Below are positions 23,462 through 34,411 of a stretch of DNA of 34,411 nt, piece after piece (positions within the stretch are counted from its first letter, which is position 1; every line of letters starts with the position of its first letter). Origin of the DNA: Bacteroidales bacterium (GTDB lineage Bacteria > Bacteroidota > Bacteroidia > Bacteroidales > UBA12077); NCBI GenBank assembly GCA_030156305.1, contig JASGMZ010000004.1, positions 1-34,411 on the forward strand, read 5' to 3'. The notes under the pieces were generated by a model. The model searched no databases. It was not told the origin of the DNA and saw only the letters and a list, made by a program, of their open reading frames with translations. The translations under genes and the position numbers were made by a program.

Positions 23462-23812
23462 ATGATAAAACAAGGATACGTCTACATTATGTCAAATAAA
23501 AACAGAACAACCTTGTATATCGGTGTTACCAATAATCTGGAACGCCGGGTGCTCGAACATAAAGCTGCCTGTGGTTCAAAATTCACATCAAAATACAATC
23601 TTTTTTATTTGCTTTACTGGGAGAAAATTGATGGAATGCAGCGAGCGATAGGCCGGGAAAAACAATTAAAAAACTGGCATAGCGAATGGAAATGGAACAT
23701 CATTCAAGAAGAAAACCCTGCGTTGAAAGATTTAGCCGGGGATTGGTTCTCGGATGATGTGATAAAAGAATATAAAAGGAGCCATTTGGCAGATTCCGAA
23801 GCTAGTTCGTAA
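23462..23812 (+). CDS. Small GIY-YIG nuclease family protein
   Basis: GYVYIMSNKNRTTLYIGVTNNLERRVLEHK; KIDGMQRAIGREKQLKNW. Confidence 0.9.
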   Translation: MIKQGYVYIMSNKNRTTLYIGVTNNLERRVLEHKAACGSKFTSKYNLFYLLYWEKIDGMQRAIGREKQLKNWHSEWKWNIIQEENPALKDLAGDWFSDDVIKEYKRSHLADSEASS

Positions 23813-23845: not shown

Positions 23846-24009
23846 TATATAGTGGCTATAAGAAAACGTCAATAACTGCGTTACGCTCGCATTGGCAACC
23901 AGTCATTTACGTCAGTAAACTCCTGGATGCCAATTCTTCGCAAGCCTTGTTCTTGACGTTTTTTATTACGCCACTAAAAAAACTGGCGTTTTCTAAGATG
24001 CACTATATA
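23846..24009. mobile_element. Palindromic MITE/REP-like element, complete copy (164 bp)
   Basis: Perfect 9-bp TIRs TATATAGTG/CACTATATA; N6-spaced inner repeats AGAAAACG/CGTTTTCT; 97/98 nt identical to 34314-34411. Confidence 0.8.
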
Positions 24010-24160: not shown

Positions 24161-26926
24161 ATGGGTAAAACACCTGAACAAATTGCACGTGAAAAGATTG
24201 ACCAAATGCTGATATCAGCGGGCTGGGTTGTTCAGGATATGAAAGATATCAACCTCGGGGCTTCGTTGGGTGTTATTGTCAGGGAATATCCTACCGAAAC
24301 AGGGCCGGCAGATTATATTATGTTTGTTAACCGTAATCCGGTGGGTGTGATCGAAGCTAAAAAAGAAGGAACTATATTAACTACTGTAGAAGAACAATCG
24401 GAGCGATATGCCACCAGCGGATTGAAATGGAATATCGATCAGCAAAAATTACCATTTATTTACGAAAGTACCGGAGTTATTACACGGTTTACAGATAATC
24501 GCGATCCGGTACCTCGTTCCAGGGAGATTTTTCATTTTCACAGGCCGGAAACACTGGAAGAATTAGTAAAACAAGAAAATTCCTTTCGCTACCGGTTAAG
24601 GAATGACATTCCGGTATTAAACCCTGAAGGGCTAAGAGCTTGCCAGGTAAATGCTATTACCAGGCTCGAAAAATCTTTTGCTGAAAATAAACCCAGGGCG
24701 CTCATTCAGATGGCCACCGGTTCGGGGAAAACATTTACAGCTATCACTTCGGTTTACCGGTTACTTAAATTTGCCCATGCAAAAAGAATTTTGTTTCTGG
24801 TGGATACCAAAAATCTGGGTGAACAAGCTGAACAGGAGTTTCAGGCATACAAGCCAAACGATGATAAACGTAAGTTTACCGAACTATATACAGTACAGCG
24901 GTTAAGCTCCTCATACATTAACCAAAGCTCGCAGGTTTGTATCAGTACGATACAGCGCATGTATTCTATTTTAAAAGGTGAAGAGCTTGACGAAACGGCC
25001 GAAGAACATTCGTTAAATGAAATAAAATTAAACAACGAAAATCCCAAAGAAGTGGTTTATAATCCGGATGTTCCGATAGAAACTTTCGATGTAATCATTA
25101 TTGATGAGTGCCACCGTTCTATTTATAATTTATGGAAACAGGTGCTCGATTATTTTGATGCTCTTCTGATTGGATTAACAGCTACACCCGATAATCGCAC
25201 TTTTGCTTTCTTTCACGAAAATGTGGTAAGCGAATATACCCATGAAGAAGCAATTGCCGACGGGGTAAATGTAGGATACGATATTTATACTATCGAAACG
25301 GAAATAACCCAAAATGGAGCAAAAATTGATGCCAAACAATTTGTGGATTTTCGCAGTAAGTTAACCCGTAAAAAACGTTGGGGGCAATTAGACGAAGAAG
25401 AAGAATATACGGGCAGGAATCTCGACCGTAATATTGTTAATCCAAGCCAGATAAGACAAGTTATACGCACATTTAAAGAAAAACTTTTAACTGAAATCTT
25501 TCCAAACCGCAAGGAAGTACCCAAAACCCTTATTTTTGCCAAAACCGACAGCCATGCCGATGATATTATTCAGATTGTGCGCGAAGAGTTTGGCGAAGGA
25601 AACCAGTTTTGTAAAAAAATCACCTATAAAATTGATGAGGATCCAAAATCCCTTTTAGCCTCGTTCCGAAATGCATACTATCCGCGTATTGCTGTTACGG
25701 TAGATATGATTGCCACCGGAACCGATGTAAAACCTTTAGAGGTGCTTTTGTTTATGCGCGATGTAAAGAGCAGAAACTACTTTGAGCAGATGAAAGGCCG
25801 CGGAACAAGAACCTACCGAAAGGATGACCTGCAAAAAGTAACGCCTTCGGCCGTTTCCAATAAAACACATTTTGTGATTGTGGATGCCATCGGCGTATGC
25901 AAATCGGTAAAAACCGAAAGCAGGGCACTGGAACGAAAAAAATCGGTCCCGCTTAAAGATCTGGTGATGAATGTAATGATGAATAACCGCGATGAAGATA
26001 CCTATACATCTCTTGCCGGGCGTTTGGGCCGAATAGAAAAGCAAATGACCCCTGAGGAAAAAAATCAATTTAAAGCTATTGCCGGTGGTAAAAGTATTCA
26101 CCAGGTAACCCATGAGCTCTTAAATGCCTACAATCCCGACTGTGCTATTGAAGAAACAAAAGCAAAATATCCCGAAACGGTTAATCTCGATGAGCAGGAA
26201 ATCCCGGCCGAAAGAGTAGAAGAAAGTAAGCAGGAATTGATAAATAAAGCAGGCAATGTATTTACCGGAGAGCTGTTGCAATATATCGAAAAAGTAAAAA
26301 CTGCACACGAGCAGATTATTGATACCGTAAACCTGGATAAAGTAAATTTTGCAGGTTTTTCGGACGATATGCAAGAGAAGGCCAAAGAAACCATCAAAAG
26401 CTTTGAGGCGTTTATTGAGGCGAATAAAGATGAAATTATTGCGCTTCGGATTTTTTACGATCAGCCTTATAAGCGCAGAAAGTTTTCTTATCAAATGATC
26501 AAAGAATTGCGCGGGAAATTGCTGCAAAGCAAACCCAATCTATCTATAATGACTGTTTGGGAAGCATATAAACGTTTGGAAAACAAACAAATATCGAACC
26601 CGGCCACCGAATTAACCGCATTGGTGGCTTTGGTAAGGCGTGCAATAGGGCTTGATACGGGCTTAACCCGGTTTGAAAGTACCGTAAATAATAATTTTAA
26701 ACAATGGGTGTTTACCAAAAATGCCGGTAATGTACAGTTTAGCAAAGAGCAAATGGAGTGGCTGCGGATGATGAAAGATTACATAGCCACCTCAATGAAT
26801 ATCGAAAAAGACGATTTTGACAACGAGCCCTTTGCCGAAAAAGGCGGGTTAATGAAAGTATGGAATATTTTTGGTGATCAACTGGAAGATATTGTAGAAG
26901 AATTAAATGTTGAATTAATTGCATAA
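24161..26926 (+). CDS. hsdR: Type I restriction endonuclease subunit R (HsdR)
   Basis: GPADYIMFVNRNPVGVIEAKKEG nuclease motif; MATGSGKTFTA; DECHRSIYNLWKQVLDYFDALLIGLTATP; GRGTRTYRKDDL. Confidence 0.95.
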   Translation: MGKTPEQIAREKIDQMLISAGWVVQDMKDINLGASLGVIVREYPTETGPADYIMFVNRNPVGVIEAKKEGTILTTVEEQSERYATSGLKWNIDQQKLPFIYESTGVITRFTDNRDPVPRSREIFHFHRPETLEELVKQENSFRYRLRNDIPVLNPEGLRACQVNAITRLEKSFAENKPRALIQMATGSGKTFTAITSVYRLLKFAHAKRILFLVDTKNLGEQAEQEFQAYKPNDDKRKFTELYTVQRLSSSYINQSSQVCISTIQRMYSILKGEELDETAEEHSLNEIKLNNENPKEVVYNPDVPIETFDVIIIDECHRSIYNLWKQVLDYFDALLIGLTATPDNRTFAFFHENVVSEYTHEEAIADGVNVGYDIYTIETEITQNGAKIDAKQFVDFRSKLTRKKRWGQLDEEEEYTGRNLDRNIVNPSQIRQVIRTFKEKLLTEIFPNRKEVPKTLIFAKTDSHADDIIQIVREEFGEGNQFCKKITYKIDEDPKSLLASFRNAYYPRIAVTVDMIATGTDVKPLEVLLFMRDVKSRNYFEQMKGRGTRTYRKDDLQKVTPSAVSNKTHFVIVDAIGVCKSVKTESRALERKKSVPLKDLVMNVMMNNRDEDTYTSLAGRLGRIEKQMTPEEKNQFKAIAGGKSIHQVTHELLNAYNPDCAIEETKAKYPETVNLDEQEIPAERVEESKQELINKAGNVFTGELLQYIEKVKTAHEQIIDTVNLDKVNFAGFSDDMQEKAKETIKSFEAFIEANKDEIIALRIFYDQPYKRRKFSYQMIKELRGKLLQSKPNLSIMTVWEAYKRLENKQISNPATELTALVALVRRAIGLDTGLTRFESTVNNNFKQWVFTKNAGNVQFSKEQMEWLRMMKDYIATSMNIEKDDFDNEPFAEKGGLMKVWNIFGDQLEDIVEELNVELIA

Positions 26927-26940
26927 CTATATTCGTAAAA

Positions 26941-27846
26941 ATGAGTAGGAATAGCGAAAATATTCTTGAAAAACCTAAATCAGAATGGGGAGGGATTTGG
27001 ACTGAAAAGAAACTTGATGCATTTGCTAAATATGTTTCCGCCTATTTAAGAATAATGAATAGGAATAAGTATTGGAAAACTATTTATTTTGATGGTTTTG
27101 CAGGAAGCGGTACCAGAAAGTCAAATTGTAAATCTCCAATATACAGGCAGTTACTATTAACCGAACAGGAAGAAAGATTATATAAAGGTGCAGCTGAACG
27201 TGTACTTTCATTACCTGATAAATTAAAATTCGATTATCATTACTTCATTGATTCAAATGAAGAGTCTCTTAATAATTTAAAGGATAGATTATTAGATTTT
27301 CAGGAAAGTTATCAAAATCAATTTCAGTACAGGACAGGCGATTGTAATCAACACTTGTTGGATCTTTCTAAAGCTATGAAATCGAATAAAAATAAATACG
27401 CATCACTTGTTTTATTGGATCCGTTTGGTATGCAAATTAGTTGGGATTCTATTGAATCATTAAAAGAAACAAGAACAGATATTTGGATTTTGATTCCGAC
27501 AGGGGTAATTGTTAACCGATTGTTAGATAAATCTTGTCAGCTTAAAAATTCAAAGAAACTTCAATCTTTTTTTGGGCTAAGTAAAGATGAAATAATTGAG
27601 TATTTTTACCAGAAAGAAGTAAGGTCAACCTTATTCGGCGATGAAGAAGTTATAACAAAGGTTTCTAAACCAATTGAAAAAATTGCTGAATTATATTCGA
27701 AAAGATTAAAATCTATTTGGAAATTTGTGACAGATAAACCGTTAAGGTTAGAAAATTCAAGGGGTGTGCCGATTTTTCATTTTGTTTTTGCTTCAAATCA
27801 TCCGGCAGCAGTTAAAATTGCAAAAGAAATTATTAAAAGTTCATAA
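26941..27846 (+). CDS. Three-Cys-motif partner protein (TcmP-like)
   Basis: KLDAFAKYVSAYLRIM...YFDGFAGSGTR; YFIDSNEESLNNL; LVLLDPFGMQISWDSI; ends 2 nt before a Gp37/Gp68 gene. Confidence 0.85.
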   Translation: MSRNSENILEKPKSEWGGIWTEKKLDAFAKYVSAYLRIMNRNKYWKTIYFDGFAGSGTRKSNCKSPIYRQLLLTEQEERLYKGAAERVLSLPDKLKFDYHYFIDSNEESLNNLKDRLLDFQESYQNQFQYRTGDCNQHLLDLSKAMKSNKNKYASLVLLDPFGMQISWDSIESLKETRTDIWILIPTGVIVNRLLDKSCQLKNSKKLQSFFGLSKDEIIEYFYQKEVRSTLFGDEEVITKVSKPIEKIAELYSKRLKSIWKFVTDKPLRLENSRGVPIFHFVFASNHPAAVKIAKEIIKSS

Positions 27847-27848
27847 TT

Positions 27849-28571
27849 ATGGCAACAACAAAAATAGAATGGACAGAAAGTACATGGAATCCTGTAACAG
27901 GATGCACTAAAATATCAGCAGGTTGTAAGTTTTGTTATGCAGAAGTTATGACCAGACGTTTAAAAGCCATGGGACAGGAAAAATATCGTTACGGGTTTGA
28001 TTTAACTTTACATCCCGAAACGTTAAAAGAACCCTATACCTGGAGAAAATCAAGAATGATTTTCGTAAATTCCATGAGCGATCTTTTTCATAAAGATATT
28101 CCTGTAGATTATATTCAAAAGGTTTTTAAAGTAATAAAGGATAACCCACAGCATGTTTTTCAGGTATTAACTAAAAGAGCTGATGTGTTAAAGTTTTATG
28201 ATAGTGAAGGATTGCTTGAGTGGCCTCATAACTTATGGATGGGAGTAACTGTTGAAAACAATGATGCTGTTGATCGAATAGATAACTTAAGAAATACAGG
28301 AGCAAGAGTTAAATTTCTTTCTTGCGAACCTTTATTAAGTGATTTACCTAGATTGAATTTGAGTCATATTGACTGGGTAATTGTTGGTGGAGAAAGCGGG
28401 CGAACACCACGTCCAATGAAAGAAGAATGGGTGATTGATATTAAAAAGCAATGCCAGCAAGCAAATGTTGCTTTTTACTTTAAACAATGGGGCGGTACAA
28501 ACAAAAAGAAAGCGGGTAGAAAGTTAGAAGGTAAAGTTTATGCTGAAATGCCTGTGTTAAACGATTTATAA
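27849..28571 (+). CDS. Phage Gp37/Gp68 (DUF5131) family three-Cys-motif protein
   Basis: IEWTESTWNPVTGCTKISAGCKFCYAE (C-x6-C-x2-C), MSDLFHKDIP, FQVLTKRAD, WVIVGGESGRTPRPM. Confidence 0.9.
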   Translation: MATTKIEWTESTWNPVTGCTKISAGCKFCYAEVMTRRLKAMGQEKYRYGFDLTLHPETLKEPYTWRKSRMIFVNSMSDLFHKDIPVDYIQKVFKVIKDNPQHVFQVLTKRADVLKFYDSEGLLEWPHNLWMGVTVENNDAVDRIDNLRNTGARVKFLSCEPLLSDLPRLNLSHIDWVIVGGESGRTPRPMKEEWVIDIKKQCQQANVAFYFKQWGGTNKKKAGRKLEGKVYAEMPVLNDL

Positions 28572-28574
28572 AAA

Positions 28575-28668
28575 CTTTGTGTCTCTTTGTGATTTTCCTT
28601 TGTGAAACTTTGTAGTAAATTTTTTTAAACCACAAAGGCGCACAAAGTACACACGAAGGCTCACAACG
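28575..28668. repeat. Heptamer palindrome, second copy: four CTTTGTG-like units then four CACAAAG-like units
   Basis: CTTTGTG 28575, 28585, 28598, CTTTGTA 28608; CACAAAG 28631, 28641, CACGAAG 28652, CACAACG 28662. Confidence 0.9.
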
Positions 28669-28688
28669 AATAAACAGGAAAATATAAA

Positions 28689-29921
28689 ATGAAATTACCA
28701 AAAGGGTGGATAAAGTCGAAATTTAAGGGAGTTTTACATAATATTTCCATTAATAATTTAAAAGTAAAGAAAAAGGATTATTTACTCCAAGGGAAGTTGC
28801 CTGTTATTGATCAAGGACAGGAGTTAATAGGTGGTTATACAAATAATATTGAAAATAAAATTGATGAAGAGCCACCTTTTATCATATTTGGTGATCATAC
28901 TAGAATTTTAAAATTTATTAATTTCAGTTTTGCACCAGGTGCTGACGGTGTAAAAGTTTTGAAGGCTAAGAATAATATAGATTCTAAATTGTTATATTAT
29001 TTTTTAAAAGTTATTATAAATAAGGTTCCCAATAAGGGTTATGCTAGGCATTTTCAATATTTAACAAAGGAAAATATCCCACTCCCCCCACTTCCCGAAC
29101 AACACCGCATTGTAAAAAAAATTGAAGAGCTGTTTAGCGAACTCGATAATGGCATAGAAAACCTGCAAAAAGCCAAAGAGCAAATAAATACCTACCGGCA
29201 ATCCGTTTTAAAAGCCGCGTTTGAAGGGAAATTGACTAATGAAAATGTTAAAAATGACGAGTTGCCAAAAGGGTGGAAGTGGCTGTCAATTAAAGATATT
29301 TGTTCTAAGGTAGAATATGGTTCATCGAAGAAATCAGAAAAAGAAGGTAGAATTCCAGTTCTTAGGATGGGGAATATTCAACATTATTTCTTTGATTGGA
29401 CTGATTTGGTTTATTCAAATGATGATGAAGAAATTACTAAATACAGATTAAAAAAGGGAGATGTTTTATTTAATAGAACAAATAGTCCTGAATTGGTTGG
29501 AAAAACTGCTATATATTTAGGAGAAAGAGAAGCAATTTTTGCAGGTTATTTAATTAGAATACATTACAATTCAGATATTAATCCAAAGTATTTAAATTAT
29601 TATCTAAACTCTCTGAATGCTAAGGAGTACGGAAATACAGTAAAAACTGATGGCGTGAATCAGTCTAATATAAATGGGCAGAGATTAAAAGGCTATCCTT
29701 TTCCTTATTGTAAAAAAGAGGAACAAAATAAAGTAGTCTCAGAAATCGAACAACGTTTCTCGGTAGCCGATAAACTGGAAGAAAGCATCGATCAAAGCCT
29801 GCAACAAGCCGAAACGTTGCGGCAAAGTATTTTAAAAAAAGCCTTTGAAGGCAAACTAGTTCCGCAGGACCCAAATGACGAGCCGGCAGAGAAATTGTTA
29901 GAAAAGATAAAAACCCCGTAA
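28689..29921 (+). CDS. hsdS: Type I restriction-modification specificity subunit S (HsdS)
   Basis: Two TRDs and two conserved helical repeats (PLPPLPEQHRIVKKIEELFSELD...FEGKLT and KVVSEIEQRFSVADKLEES...FEGKLVPQDPNDEPA). Confidence 0.95.
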   Translation: MKLPKGWIKSKFKGVLHNISINNLKVKKKDYLLQGKLPVIDQGQELIGGYTNNIENKIDEEPPFIIFGDHTRILKFINFSFAPGADGVKVLKAKNNIDSKLLYYFLKVIINKVPNKGYARHFQYLTKENIPLPPLPEQHRIVKKIEELFSELDNGIENLQKAKEQINTYRQSVLKAAFEGKLTNENVKNDELPKGWKWLSIKDICSKVEYGSSKKSEKEGRIPVLRMGNIQHYFFDWTDLVYSNDDEEITKYRLKKGDVLFNRTNSPELVGKTAIYLGEREAIFAGYLIRIHYNSDINPKYLNYYLNSLNAKEYGNTVKTDGVNQSNINGQRLKGYPFPYCKKEEQNKVVSEIEQRFSVADKLEESIDQSLQQAETLRQSILKKAFEGKLVPQDPNDEPAEKLLEKIKTP

Positions 29922-30177
29922 GAGTTTTCGGTTTGTAACCAGCAGTACAGATTGCAGTCAGAGCTCCGTAGATAAAGTAATATGTCAAAGAACAAAGATA
30001 TATTAAATCTAACTTAATGCCAGATGGCACAAAGAAAGGAGCGATCTGTTCCAAGCCCGCCACTACATGGCTCAATGGCTCATATTTTTAAACACTTTTG
30101 TTATAAACAGTACACTACTTCGTAGCTTTCTTTTTTATGTTTTTATCAGTAGTTTTGTATAAAATTTTGTAATAAAA

Positions 30178-30636
30178 ATGGCAAATACTTACACTCAGTT
30201 ATATATACAAATTGTATTTCCCGTAAAAAACAGGGAAAGTGTTATTCCACAAAAACATAAAGAAGAATTACATAAATATACTACTGGAATTATTCAAAAT
30301 CGTAATCATAAATTATTAGCTATTAATTATATGCCTTTTCATGCGCATATATTTATTGGCTATAAACCTGTTCAGGCACTACCTGATCTTGTTTGTGATA
30401 TAAAAGCAAATACCTCTAAATTTATAAATGATAAAAATTGGGTAATTGGACGTTTCAGCTGGCAGGAGGGCTATGGTGCTTTTTCATATTCCAGATCGCA
30501 CATCGATCATGTTATTCAGTACAAAATTAAACAGGAAGAACATCATAAAAAATCTTCATATAAAGACGAATACCTTAAATTATTAAAAAAATATGAGGTT
30601 AATTATGATGATAAATACCCGTTCAACTGGATATAA
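30178..30636 (+). CDS. IS200/IS605-type Y1 (HUH) transposase
   Basis: MANTYTQLYIQIVFPVKNRESVI; HAH motif in MPFHAHIFIG; VIQYKIKQEEHHKKSSYKDEYLKLLKKYEVNYDDKY. Confidence 0.9.
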   Translation: MANTYTQLYIQIVFPVKNRESVIPQKHKEELHKYTTGIIQNRNHKLLAINYMPFHAHIFIGYKPVQALPDLVCDIKANTSKFINDKNWVIGRFSWQEGYGAFSYSRSHIDHVIQYKIKQEEHHKKSSYKDEYLKLLKKYEVNYDDKYPFNWI

Positions 30637-30650
30637 ATATAAATATTACC

Positions 30651-30935
30651 ATGTACCAATTATCAAAAAAAAAAAATAAAATTACCAGCGAAATCAATGA
30701 AAAGAGGTTACAAACCGAATACAAAACCGGAATTTTACGCTGCAAAAAAATTTTGGATAACTGGAACCCCGATGCAATGGATAACTTTGAAACATACCAT
30801 AAACTTTATAAAACACTAACTGAATACGATAAACACTTTGCTTTTTGTTACGATTACATGAGTGGCTCAAAATATTTAAATGTTATAGCTTTACAGTTAG
30901 CCGATAAGGTTGGCTTAAAAGGCTTTTACCGATGA
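30651..30935 (+). CDS. Hypothetical small protein with an A12 tract in codons 5-9
   Basis: 94-aa ORF 14 nt after the transposase; no recognised family. Confidence 0.45.
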   Translation: MYQLSKKKNKITSEINEKRLQTEYKTGILRCKKILDNWNPDAMDNFETYHKLYKTLTEYDKHFAFCYDYMSGSKYLNVIALQLADKVGLKGFYR

Positions 30936-30998
30936 AACCAGGGATATAATTATTCGCTGGAGCAGAATAAATGAAAAAATCTAAATAATTTAAACAAG

Positions 30999-32588
30999 AT
31001 GGAAGAAAAAAGAGAAGAAACTTTTGAATTTTTAAATTACAAGCTAACAGATGATCCTGAACTTTTAGATAAAGATTCAAGAATTACACCAGAATTATCC
31101 GAACAAATGGAATCTTTGCATCATAAAGCCCTGAAAGGCGGCAAAAAAAATATCGATTATTTATTGCATAAAATTGAGCAATACCCGGATGTTCCGCAGC
31201 TTAAAAATTATTTATCGGTAGCTTATATGAATAGTGGTAAAACAAAAAAAAGTTTTGAAGTGAATGATTGGATTCTCAAGGAGCATCCTGATTATTTGTT
31301 TGGATTATTAAATAAAGGATACGAGTATTATATAAATGAGCAGTACGAGAAAATTCCGGAGTTGTTAGGCCATTTAATGGAAATAAAAGAGTTATATCCC
31401 GAACGGGATATTTTCCATTTTTCAGAAGTGATTTCTTTTAATAAATTAGCGGTCATGTATTTTTCGGTAATCGGCAATTTTGAAGCAGCCGAATCGAGAT
31501 TTGAGTTATTAGCGAAGCTGGCTCCCGATCACAGGGAAACGGAAATAGCATTTCAGGCACTTCTGAGTGCCCGCATGAAAGCAGGACACGAGAAATTCCT
31601 TGAAGAAGAAAAAATGCGAATTAGCCCTGAGCTTAAGGACTACAATAAATCGATACAAACCGATAAAGCACCAGAATTTGAGCATTTATTAATCAATGAA
31701 TTATATCAGAACGATGTTAAAATCAATCACGATATTTTAAAAGAAATTCTAAGCCTGCCCCGCCACTCAATTATTAGCGACCTGAAGAAAGTTTTAAACG
31801 ATTCGATTTGCCGTTTCGAATATTTTAAGGAGTTGTATAATGAGGGAAATATTAATGGAAAAGATATCACTTTTCCCATACATGCTTTGTTTTTGCTGGG
31901 TGAATTAAAGGCTTATGAAACGTTGGATGATATTTTAGAAAATTTAAGGCAGGGAAAAGAATTTATCGAATTCTGGTATGGAATTTTTATGACCGAAGCT
32001 TTATGGTTGCCTTTGTATCAATTAGCCGGGCCTAATCTGGATAATTTAAAAGATTTTATGCTTGAGACGGGAATATATACCTATGCCAAAACCGAAGTTT
32101 CAACAGCTATTATGCAATACTATTACAATAATCCTGAAAAAAGAGAGCTTATTGTAAACTGGTACCAAAGCATTCTGCACAATTTTTTAACCACAGAGAA
32201 AGACAACCTGATAGATTCCGAATTAATTAGTTTAATGATATGTGAGATAATGAAAGCTGATTTTAAAGAACTAATCCCTTTAATAGAAAAACTTTACGAA
32301 AAAGGGTATGTTAGCCAGGGTGTTTGTGGTACATTAGATGAAGTAAAAGAATATTTTGGAAAACATGAAATTGAGTACTGGAAAAACGATAAAAAATCAA
32401 TCTTTGAAATGTATGATTATATTGTAAAATATTGGTATTCATACAACAAAGAAAAGCAAAACGAAACATTTGATTCCTGGCACAAAAAGGAAGAAACATA
32501 TATACGCAACGAACCTAAAATTGGGCGAAACGACCCTTGTCCTTGTGGTAGCGGGAAAAAATACAAAAATTGCTGTTTAAATAAATAA
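30999..32588 (+). CDS. TPR-like / DUF1186-like protein with C-terminal SEC-C motif
   Basis: Helical repeats ([23 protein letters not shown]); [45 protein letters not shown]. Confidence 0.75.
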
Positions 32589-32642
32589 ACCATAAAAAAA
32601 TTAAGTACAATTCTTGAAATTTTTAACTTTTATATTGAAAGA

Positions 32643-34109
32643 ATGACACAACAAATCATACAAAAAGTCTGGAATTATTGCAATACCTTACGGGATGACG
32701 GGGTAAGTTACGGCGATTATGTAACCCAACTGACCTACCTGCTGTTTTTAAAAATGGCCGATGAGTATTCCAAAAAACCTTACGAACGCAATATCGGAAT
32801 TCCTGAAAAGTATAACTGGGAATCGTTGAGAACAAAAACAGGAGCAGAGCTGGAAGCTCATTACATTACTATTTTAAATGAGCTGGGTAAACAAAAAGGC
32901 ATGCTGGGACAGATTTTTTTCAAAGCGCGAAACGAGATTTCCGACCCTTCCAAGTTGCATAAGCTGGTACAAATGATTGACCAGGAAACATGGGTAATGC
33001 TGGGTTCGGATGTGAAAGGCGATATTTACGAAGGGCTATTACAGAAAAATGCAGAAGATACCAAAAGCGGTGCCGGCCAATATTTCACACCACGCCCGTT
33101 AATACGTGCAATGGTTGAGTGTGTTCGGCCACAGCCTATGAAAACTATGGCCGATCCGGCATGTGGTACGGGTGGTTTCTTTTTGGCTTATTATGATTTT
33201 ATCAATCAGTTTTATAAAAAATCTTTAGATAAAGAGCAGCAGGAGTTTTTACGTAAGAAAACATTTAAAGGATGGGATATCGTACCCAACACCGTTCGTT
33301 TGGGATTAATGAACCTGGTTTTACACAATATTGGCGATTTGGATGATACCAATCCGCCTATTGTTCGCAACGATAGCCTTATTTCCGATACCGGCGAACG
33401 GTTCTATTATGTATTAACCAATCCTCCGTTTGGCAAAAAGAGTAGTTATACCATTACCAACGACGATGGTACGCAATCCAAAGAAGCTTTAACCTATAAC
33501 CGTCAGGATTTTTGGGCTACCACATCCAATAAGCAGTTAAATTTCATTCAGCATATCCGCACCATATTAAAAATTGATGGCAAGGCCGCTGTGGTGGTTC
33601 CCGATAATGTGTTGTTCGAAGGTGGAGCGGGAGAGACCGTGCGGAAAAAACTGCTGGAAACTACCGATTTACACACTATTCTACGGTTGCCTACCGGATT
33701 GTTTTATGCACAGGGAGTAAAAGCAAATGTGCTGTTTTTCGATAACAAACCGGCAAGTAAAAACCCGTGGACCAAAGACGTGTGGATTTACGACCTGCGT
33801 ACCAACAAGCATTTTACCTTAAAAACAAACCAGTTAAGTTACGAAGACCTTAAAGATTTTATCCGGTGTTATAATCCGGATAATCGATTTGAGCGTAAAG
33901 AAACAGAGCGGTTTAAAAAGTTTACTTACGAGGAGATTATTGCCCGCGATAAAACCAGCTTAGATATTTTCTGGTTAAAAGATGAAAGCTTAAGCGATTT
34001 GGAAAATTTACCGAAACCCAATGTACTGGCCGAGGAGATTATTCAAAATATTGAAGCCGGGCTAAATAGCTTTAAAGAAGTGCTGAATGGATTAAATGGG
34101 AGGGAATAA
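32643..34109 (+). CDS. hsdM: Type I restriction-modification N6-adenine methyltransferase subunit (HsdM)
   Basis: YFTPRPLIRAMVECV; MADPACGTGGFFLAYYDF; VLTNPPFGKKS; VVVPDNVLFEGG. Confidence 0.96.
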   Translation: MTQQIIQKVWNYCNTLRDDGVSYGDYVTQLTYLLFLKMADEYSKKPYERNIGIPEKYNWESLRTKTGAELEAHYITILNELGKQKGMLGQIFFKARNEISDPSKLHKLVQMIDQETWVMLGSDVKGDIYEGLLQKNAEDTKSGAGQYFTPRPLIRAMVECVRPQPMKTMADPACGTGGFFLAYYDFINQFYKKSLDKEQQEFLRKKTFKGWDIVPNTVRLGLMNLVLHNIGDLDDTNPPIVRNDSLISDTGERFYYVLTNPPFGKKSSYTITNDDGTQSKEALTYNRQDFWATTSNKQLNFIQHIRTILKIDGKAAVVVPDNVLFEGGAGETVRKKLLETTDLHTILRLPTGLFYAQGVKANVLFFDNKPASKNPWTKDVWIYDLRTNKHFTLKTNQLSYEDLKDFIRCYNPDNRFERKETERFKKFTYEEIIARDKTSLDIFWLKDESLSDLENLPKPNVLAEEIIQNIEAGLNSFKEVLNGLNGRE

Positions 34110-34313: not shown

Positions 34314-34411
34314 TATATAGTGGCTATAAGAAAACGTCAATAACTGCGTTACGCTCGCATTGGCAACCAGTCATTTACGTCAGTAAACTCCTGGCTGCCA
34401 ATTCTTCGCAA
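34314..34411. mobile_element. Palindromic MITE/REP-like element, second copy, truncated by the window end
   Basis: 97/98 nt identical to 23846-23943 in the same orientation; one A/C difference. Confidence 0.85.

What the first reader, a model, noticed from the sequence alone, without database searches (positions are those of the whole stretch)
23846..24009. Compact 164-bp palindromic element with nested symmetric arms and a duplicated right terminus
Outer TIRs TATATAGTG/CACTATATA are perfect. Six nt in from each lies AGAAAACG/CGTTTTCT, also perfect. The left segment AAAACGTCAA (23863-23872) also pairs perfectly with TTGACGTTTT (23953-23962), and TAGTGGC (23850-23856) with GCCACTA (23970-23976). 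The left end therefore has two competing right-end partners. The core also folds: ATTGGCA-ACCAG...CTGG-TGCCAAT enclosing TTTAC-GTCA-GTAAA. This suggests an element with alternative foldbacks, a duplicated terminus, or a structured-RNA function.
Basis: seen in the sequence. Interest (0 to 1): 0.7.

Follow-up and report, generated by a model that had tools for sequence, protein, structure and literature searches.

The report
ERIC-type hairpin in a Bacteroidales MITE
The 164-bp palindrome is one of roughly 45-65 copies of a tiny transposon without genes; its ends match those of a family of insertion sequences, and inside it is a strongly conserved hairpin related to the ERIC repeats of E. coli that also occurs, often in many copies, in several other bacterial phyla where I found no report of ERIC-like repeats.

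Summary
The same genome holds 47 left and 41 right ends, 23 paired; copies are about 95% identical and carry no gene. The outer TATATA is not part of the inverted repeats but a 6-bp target duplication (TAnnTA), identical on both sides in 21 of 24 copies in relatives (5.2 expected). The true ends are GTGGC...GCAC; the outer right end, not the inner one, is used. Ends and duplications match ISNCY-family insertion sequences (ISRm17-like) of other Bacteroidales and rhizobia, the likely transposase source, though no ISNCY gene was found in this genome. The "second right partner" is real and conserved: it is the second arm of a hairpin whose first arm overlaps the left end. A covariance model of that hairpin built without enterobacteria finds E. 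coli ERIC (28.7 bits; best control 17.8); a cross-phylum model gives 39.2 and finds 1 to at least 150 copies per genome in ten genomes, including Gammaproteobacteria, Clostridia, Staphylococcus, Sulfurimonas and Mucispirillum. Compensatory changes are strong (314 cells; 104 in shuffles). Ends and duplications differ by group (6 bp here, 8 bp in a gammaproteobacterium, TA reported for ERIC). What the hairpin does is not shown.

The parts
23846..23851 (.). Left copy of the 6-bp target-site duplication TATATA (TAnnTA type)
   Evidence: Identical 6-mer on both sides here; 6-mers equal in 21/24 copies of other Bacteroidota (shuffle mean 5.2) and 10/20 in the own genome (2.7)
23852..24003 (-). The MITE proper (GTG...CAC), given on the strand on which the hairpin is more stable
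   Evidence: Boundaries from the alignment of copies and the flanking duplications; 47 left and 41 right ends in the genome
23850..23867 (+). Left end (TIR) TAGTGGCTATAAGAAAAC, counting the adjoining TA of the target duplication
   Evidence: 41 of 47 genomic hits match 23/23 nt; 16/18 to the ends of the ISNCY element in L273
23988..24005 (-). Outer right end (TIR) TAGTGCATCTTAGAAAAC: the right end that abuts the target duplication in complete copies
   Evidence: 16/18 to an ISNCY end of L273, 12 of 20000 tail shuffles as good
24004..24009 (.). Right copy of the target-site duplication TATATA
23850..23976 (-). ERIC-type hairpin; its plus-strand 5' arm overlaps the left TIR
   Evidence: Covariance models and pair counts
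23953..23976 (+).
   Evidence: Seen in copies and relatives and in analogous form in gammaproteobacterial copies
23876..23889 (.). Conserved internal-loop motif CTGCGTTACGCTCG (widely shared part CTGCGTT)
23936..23949 (.). Conserved internal-loop motif CTTCGCAAGCCTTG (widely shared part GCCTTG)
23902..23923 (-). Near-invariant tip GTCATTTAC-GTCA-GTAAACTCC; on the - strand GGAGTTTAC..GTAAATGAC with a 3x3 internal loop GAG/TGA
   Evidence: E. coli ERIC has the compensated form CTTAC/GTAAG
34314..34411 (+). A second copy, cut off by the end of the contig

Best explanation
It is a non-autonomous transposable element (MITE). An ISNCY-family (ISRm17-like) transposase, supplied in trans by insertion sequences that come and go in the lineage, acts on the left end and the outer right end (TAGTGnCt..AGAAAAC) and inserts the element at TAnnTA, duplicating those 6 bp. 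Between the ends lies an ERIC-type hairpin whose first arm is built from the left end, so the left end pairs both with the hairpin's second arm and with the outer right end. The hairpin is kept by selection on its structure (stems covary, internal loops and tip are conserved, wobble pairs mark one strand) and occurs in other phyla inside transposon ends of other types. I infer that it is a shared cis-acting module of these MITEs, acting as single-stranded DNA or RNA, that helps them spread or be tolerated. SHOWN: multicopy, ends, target duplication, end match to ISNCY elements, covariation, relation to ERIC. INFERRED: that an ISNCY transposase moves it; what the hairpin does.
For: Copies and ends. 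Target duplication. ISNCY elements with the same kind of ends and TAnn(n)TA duplications: L247/L275 (TAATTA), L272 (TATATA, TAGTGTCTGAAAGAAAAC at both ends, about 1.85 kb), L273 (TATTTA), ISRm17 (TAGCCTA), ISRle10 (TAGTCTA); family assignment 332 bits, above the cut-off of 325. End similarity 16/18 for both window ends, 12-15 of 20000 tail shuffles as good. In G129 the only match to the MITE-end pattern in the genome lies beside the ISNCY gene. Hairpin: 37 pairs, 24 with compensatory changes; cross-phylum 314 cells changed on both sides against 104 +/- 8 shuffled; 89.5% of cells paired against 35-47% in slid controls. ERIC: model R1 (20 Bacteroidota and one Chlorobiota sequence) 28.7 and 26.3 bits, best control 17.8; cross-phylum model R2 39.2 and 37.9, best control 23.9. 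One strand more stable in 113 versus 5 elements. Copy numbers in isolates: Marinilabilia rubra 41, Pseudomonas punonensis 31, Staphylococcus petrasii 12.
Against: No ISNCY transposase found in the own genome (78% complete) or its genus, only 1 of 25 family genomes, and none in Marinilabilia rubra despite 41 copies. Across the order, presence of ISNCY and of the end pattern are only weakly associated (9 shared, 5.8 expected, Fisher p = 0.12). Only half of the own copies have equal 6-mers on both flanks (10/20); recombination between copies or assembly joins could explain that. No empty site was compared. Nothing tests the hairpin's function.
Confidence: 0.72

Rival explanations
1. The hairpin is the functional unit as RNA: the element is an RNA-regulatory or mRNA-stability element (as reported for ERIC in Yersinia) that happens to be spread by transposition.
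For: Strong covariation with wobble pairs on one strand; ERIC insertions affect mRNA decay in Yersinia (reviewed in PMC10969869 and PMC2229807).
Against: No Rfam family. The more stable strand is antisense to co-directional neighbours more often than sense (43 versus 20, p = 0.005), including the window copy. Copies lie in varied gene orientations.
Confidence: 0.2
2. Ordinary MITE made by internal deletion of an ISNCY element; the interior is leftover palindromic filler without function.
For: Ends and target duplication match ISNCY elements; 55-bp mini-copies with ends only exist (L058, L059).
Against: The one ISNCY element read in full shows no such hairpin (L247); interior motifs and fold recur in other phyla with other ends. 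Filler would not covary.
Confidence: 0.06
3. Two alternative foldbacks form a switch: the left end chooses between inner and outer right partners during transposition (for example blocking or allowing synapsis).
For: Both right partners are conserved in Bacteroidota and, with different sequences, in a gammaproteobacterium (left GTAACTATTCAGC, inner CTGAACAGTTAC, outer GCTGAATAGTTAC).
Against: The inner pairing is more stable by 13-18 kcal/mol; both partners are explained without a switch by hairpin and TIR sharing the left end.
Confidence: 0.15

Closest known systems
ERIC / IRU / RU-1 repeats of Enterobacteriaceae and Vibrionaceae
   Same: Same order and orientation of CTGCGTT, CCAGTCAYTTAC-loop-GTAARCTCCTGG and GCCTT motifs; same nested hairpin; found by models built without any E. 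coli ERIC. Short, gene-less, multicopy.
   Different: Ends differ (ERIC TATACTC/GAGTATA; 8-9 of 18 to the ISNCY ends) and the reported ERIC target duplication is TA (PMC2759123), against TAnnTA here. Here the right terminus is duplicated. ERIC is reviewed as a repeat of Enterobacteriaceae and Vibrionaceae (PMC10969869).
ISNCY family insertion sequences, ISRm17-like (NCBIfam NF033593)
   Same: Terminal repeats TAGTGnCn..CCATAAA or ..AGAAAAC and TAnn(n)TA duplication.
   Different: The window element has no transposase gene and carries a hairpin not seen in the ISNCY element read in full (L247).
RUP and Correia/NEMIS MITEs
   Same: Short palindromic gene-less elements; RUP is proposed to be mobilised by an insertion sequence with similar ends (IS630-Spn1; PMC2229807).
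   Different: Different ends and target (TA). Cores were not compared by sequence here.
BrickBuilt MITE of Porphyromonas gingivalis
   Same: A MITE in Bacteroidota.
   Different: Defined by an internal minisatellite (PMC4596501, abstract); not compared by sequence here.

Membership tests
MITE (non-autonomous transposable element) | Many near-identical short copies without a transposase gene | tested here: met
   47 left ends, 41 right ends, about 95% identity
MITE (non-autonomous transposable element) | Terminal inverted repeats flanked by target-site duplications | tested here: met
   21/24 equal 6-mers in relatives against 5.2 by shuffle
MITE (non-autonomous transposable element) | An autonomous partner with matching ends | tested here: inconclusive
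   Matching ISNCY elements in other Bacteroidales but none in the own genome
MITE (non-autonomous transposable element) | Demonstrated mobilisation | not testable with these tools
   Needs a transposition assay; no empty site compared
ERIC | Core CCAGTCACTTAC-loop-GTAAGCTCCTGG with flanking CTGCGTT / GCCTT in the same hairpin | tested here: met
   Models without ERIC in training rank E. coli ERIC first; sequences side by side
ERIC | ERIC termini (TATACTC...GAGTATA) | tested here: not met
   Termini here are TAGTGGC.../...GCACTA; ERIC ends
ERIC | TA target duplication (as reported) | tested here: not met
   6-bp TAnnTA here; the TA duplication of ERIC is from PMC2759123, not tested here
ISNCY insertion sequence | Encodes an ISNCY transposase | tested here: not met
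   The element is 152 bp; no ISNCY gene found in the genome
ISNCY insertion sequence | TAGTG-type ends with TAnn(n)TA duplication | tested here: met
Known structured RNA (Rfam 15) | Match above gathering score | tested here: not met
   None in the element, nor in two E. coli ERIC loci and 10 other relatives

The most novel reading that the evidence does not exclude
ERIC is the enterobacterial branch of a hairpin module spread over at least five phyla that has been combined with the ends of several unrelated insertion-sequence families (ISNCY type with 6-bp TAnnTA in Bacteroidota; GTAAC ends with 8-bp duplications in a gammaproteobacterium; TA type in enterobacteria). It would be a portable cis-acting structure that lets gene-less elements exploit whatever transposase is at hand, with a duplicated right terminus as part of the design in at least two of the branches.
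Probability: 0.4. Interest if true: 0.9.

Novelty: new variant of a known kind. Interest (0 to 1): 0.76.

Why it matters
ERIC was described in 1990-91 and underlies a widely used typing PCR, but what moves it and why its hairpin is conserved are open, and the reviews read here place it in Enterobacteriaceae and Vibrionaceae only. If the hairpin is a module shared across phyla and set in different transposon ends, both questions become testable: compare which ends and transposases go with it, and ask which protein or process reads the conserved loops. It also proposes a concrete transposase family (ISNCY) for one branch.

Tried and rejected
A link to the adjoining GIY-YIG gene: the genome has only two other, distant paralogues against some 45-65 copies of the element. 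A link to the Y1 (IS200-like) transposase of the window (30178-30636): Y1 elements leave no target duplication (established knowledge), whereas these copies do. Plasmid homologues of the element: none. Rfam: none. Long elements with the same ends among the first fetched loci: none; the PF01609 search was the route to the ISNCY element. Viral contigs: most of the 13 pattern hits look like chance matches in coding sequence by eye; only L200 looks like a hairpin. The first alignment, on the plus strand, gave a poor consensus fold; the minus strand gave a strong one. IS66 as partner of the gammaproteobacterial copies: one weak IS66 hit (36.9 bits) in that genome, one GTAACTATTCAG beside it but no element with both ends, and nothing on plasmids; left open. 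Laying the whole genome in the Python box was not available.

Full report
WHAT IS THERE. The window is contig C117 of a fragmented 2.59-Mb genome, 78% complete, 232 contigs. Its genus-mate G017 has a contig (C85, 39549 bases) whose length and element agree with JAQIBH010000108.1, a Bacteroidales MAG, so the window is most likely Bacteroidales.

A MULTICOPY ELEMENT. A BLAST search of the genome finds 43 matches, most at 92-99% identity. Pattern searches find 47 left ends and 41 outer right ends with no control hit; 23 pair within 200 bp. Unpaired ends that were looked at stop at contig ends, so the element itself probably breaks the assembly. Left ends are almost invariant: 41 of 47 match 23/23 nt. 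Two copies are 55-bp minis with only the ends (L058, L059).

TRUE ENDS. Flanks read TAnnTA-GTG...CAC-TAnnTA. In other Bacteroidota the two 6-mers are equal in 21 of 24 copies (5.2 by shuffling); in the own genome in 10 of 20 (2.7). One copy (L009) has a 7-bp TAnnnTA. So the outer TATATA is target duplication, and the outer right end, not the inner one, is the end of complete copies. The lower agreement in the own genome is unexplained; recombination between copies or assembly joins are possible.

THE SAME ANATOMY IN RELATIVES. Eight of 25 genomes of the family (own included) have matches; most of the elements printed have left end, hairpin, inner right arm and outer right end with diverged arms. 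The end pattern TAGTGTYTGTCYATAAAGTC occurs in 33 of 147 genomes of the order, up to 143 times in one, with control counts of 0 or 1.

CANDIDATE TRANSPOSASE. A search for DDE_Tnp_1 genes found one (L247, 443 aa) flanked by TAATTA-GTGTCTGTCCATAA on both sides. It is an ISNCY-family transposase (332 bits, cut-off 325). Other ISNCY elements share ends and duplication: L272 (TATATA, TAGTGTCTGAAAGAAAAC twice), L273 (TATTTA, TAGTGYCTCTAAGAAAAC), and the rhizobial ISRm17 and ISRle10 (TAGCCTA, TAGTCTA; TAGTGCCCGTCCATAAAC). Both window ends match an L273 end at 16/18; 12-15 of 20000 tail shuffles do as well. Against this: no ISNCY gene was found in the own genome or genus, nor in Marinilabilia rubra with 41 hairpins, and co-occurrence over the order is weak (p = 0.12). 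The partner may be transient or missing from MAGs; the link is inferred from ends and target.

THE HAIRPIN. One strand folds better in 113 elements against 5: mismatches on the plus strand are wobbles on the minus strand. On the minus strand 21 sequences (20 Bacteroidota, one Chlorobiota MAG) give 37 pairs, 24 with compensatory changes. Twenty-nine sequences from a mostly non-Bacteroidota set, aligned to that model, give 89.5% paired cells (slid controls 35-47%) and 314 cells changed on both sides (shuffled 104 +/- 8). That second alignment was fitted to the model and leans towards it; the first was not. The tip was selected by the pattern and counts for nothing; the outer and inner stems and the CTGCGTT/GCCTTG loop were not in the pattern.

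RELATION TO ERIC. E. coli ERIC has the same order of motifs, with the tip stem compensated (CTTAC/GTAAG for TTTAC/GTAAA). Model R1, built from the 21-sequence alignment, puts the two E. coli ERICs first (28.7, 26.3 bits; best in 50 kb of E. coli control 17.8). Model R2 gives 39.2 and 37.9 (control 23.9). E-values from these short calibrations are rough. One Pseudomonadales MAG holds both tip variants (L308, L321).

OTHER ENDS ELSEWHERE. R2 matches per genome (E <= 0.001): gammaproteobacterium S140_32 at least 150, Clostridia RGIG4556 42, Marinilabilia rubra 41, Pseudomonas punonensis 31, Bacteroidales E22 29, Mucispirillum 13, Staphylococcus petrasii 12, Sulfurimonas 6, a Pseudomonadales MAG 2, Neomelitea 1. 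In S140_32 the left end GTAACTATTCAGC is followed by the hairpin, an inner partner CTGAACAGTTAC and an outer partner GCTGAATAGTTAC, with 8-bp duplications in 10 of 14 copies (0.7 by shuffling). So the duplicated right terminus recurs with unrelated ends. GTAA ends with 8-bp duplications recall IS66 from memory, but no matching IS66 element was found.

LITERATURE. ERIC is reviewed as a MITE of Enterobacteriaceae and Vibrionaceae with TA duplications and an unknown mover (PMC10969869, PMC2229807, PMC2759123). My searches of the open-access library found no report of it in other phyla; most subscription papers are not in that library, so priority is not certain.

WHAT THE HAIRPIN DOES. Not shown. 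Selection on structure is well supported. The stable strand is antisense to co-directional neighbours in 43 against 20 cases (simple ORF calls, related copies not removed), which speaks weakly against a role in the neighbours' mRNA and for a role as DNA.

Noticed in passing
window 24161-34109: The element sits at the edge of what looks like a type I restriction-modification island: HsdR-like (24161-26926), HsdS-like (28689-29921) and HsdM-like (32643-34109) ORFs, judged from the translations only.
   Followed up: no
window 30178-30636: IS200-like Y1 transposase (PF01797, 73.8 bits) inside that island.
   Followed up: partly
window 23462-23812: Single-domain GIY-YIG protein directly left of the element; two distant paralogues in the genome (C31, C35).
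   Followed up: partly
L009 1501-1657: A copy with a 7-bp TAnnnTA duplication (TAAAATA), as in ISRm17 and the ISNCY element of L293.
   Followed up: partly
L041, L087, L091, L100, L109: Short GC-rich palindromes (REP-like) inserted inside the hairpin, several of them next to the GTTAC of the CTGCGTTAC loop.
   Followed up: no
L312, L328, L321, L308: Sulfurimonas and Pseudomonadales hairpins have GAGACC..TGCA-type flanks, which recall IS5-family ends (from memory); possibly a further type of terminus.
   Followed up: no
G000, 10 of 20 complete copies: Unequal 6-mer flanks are much commoner in the own genome than in relatives (3 of 24).
   Followed up: partly
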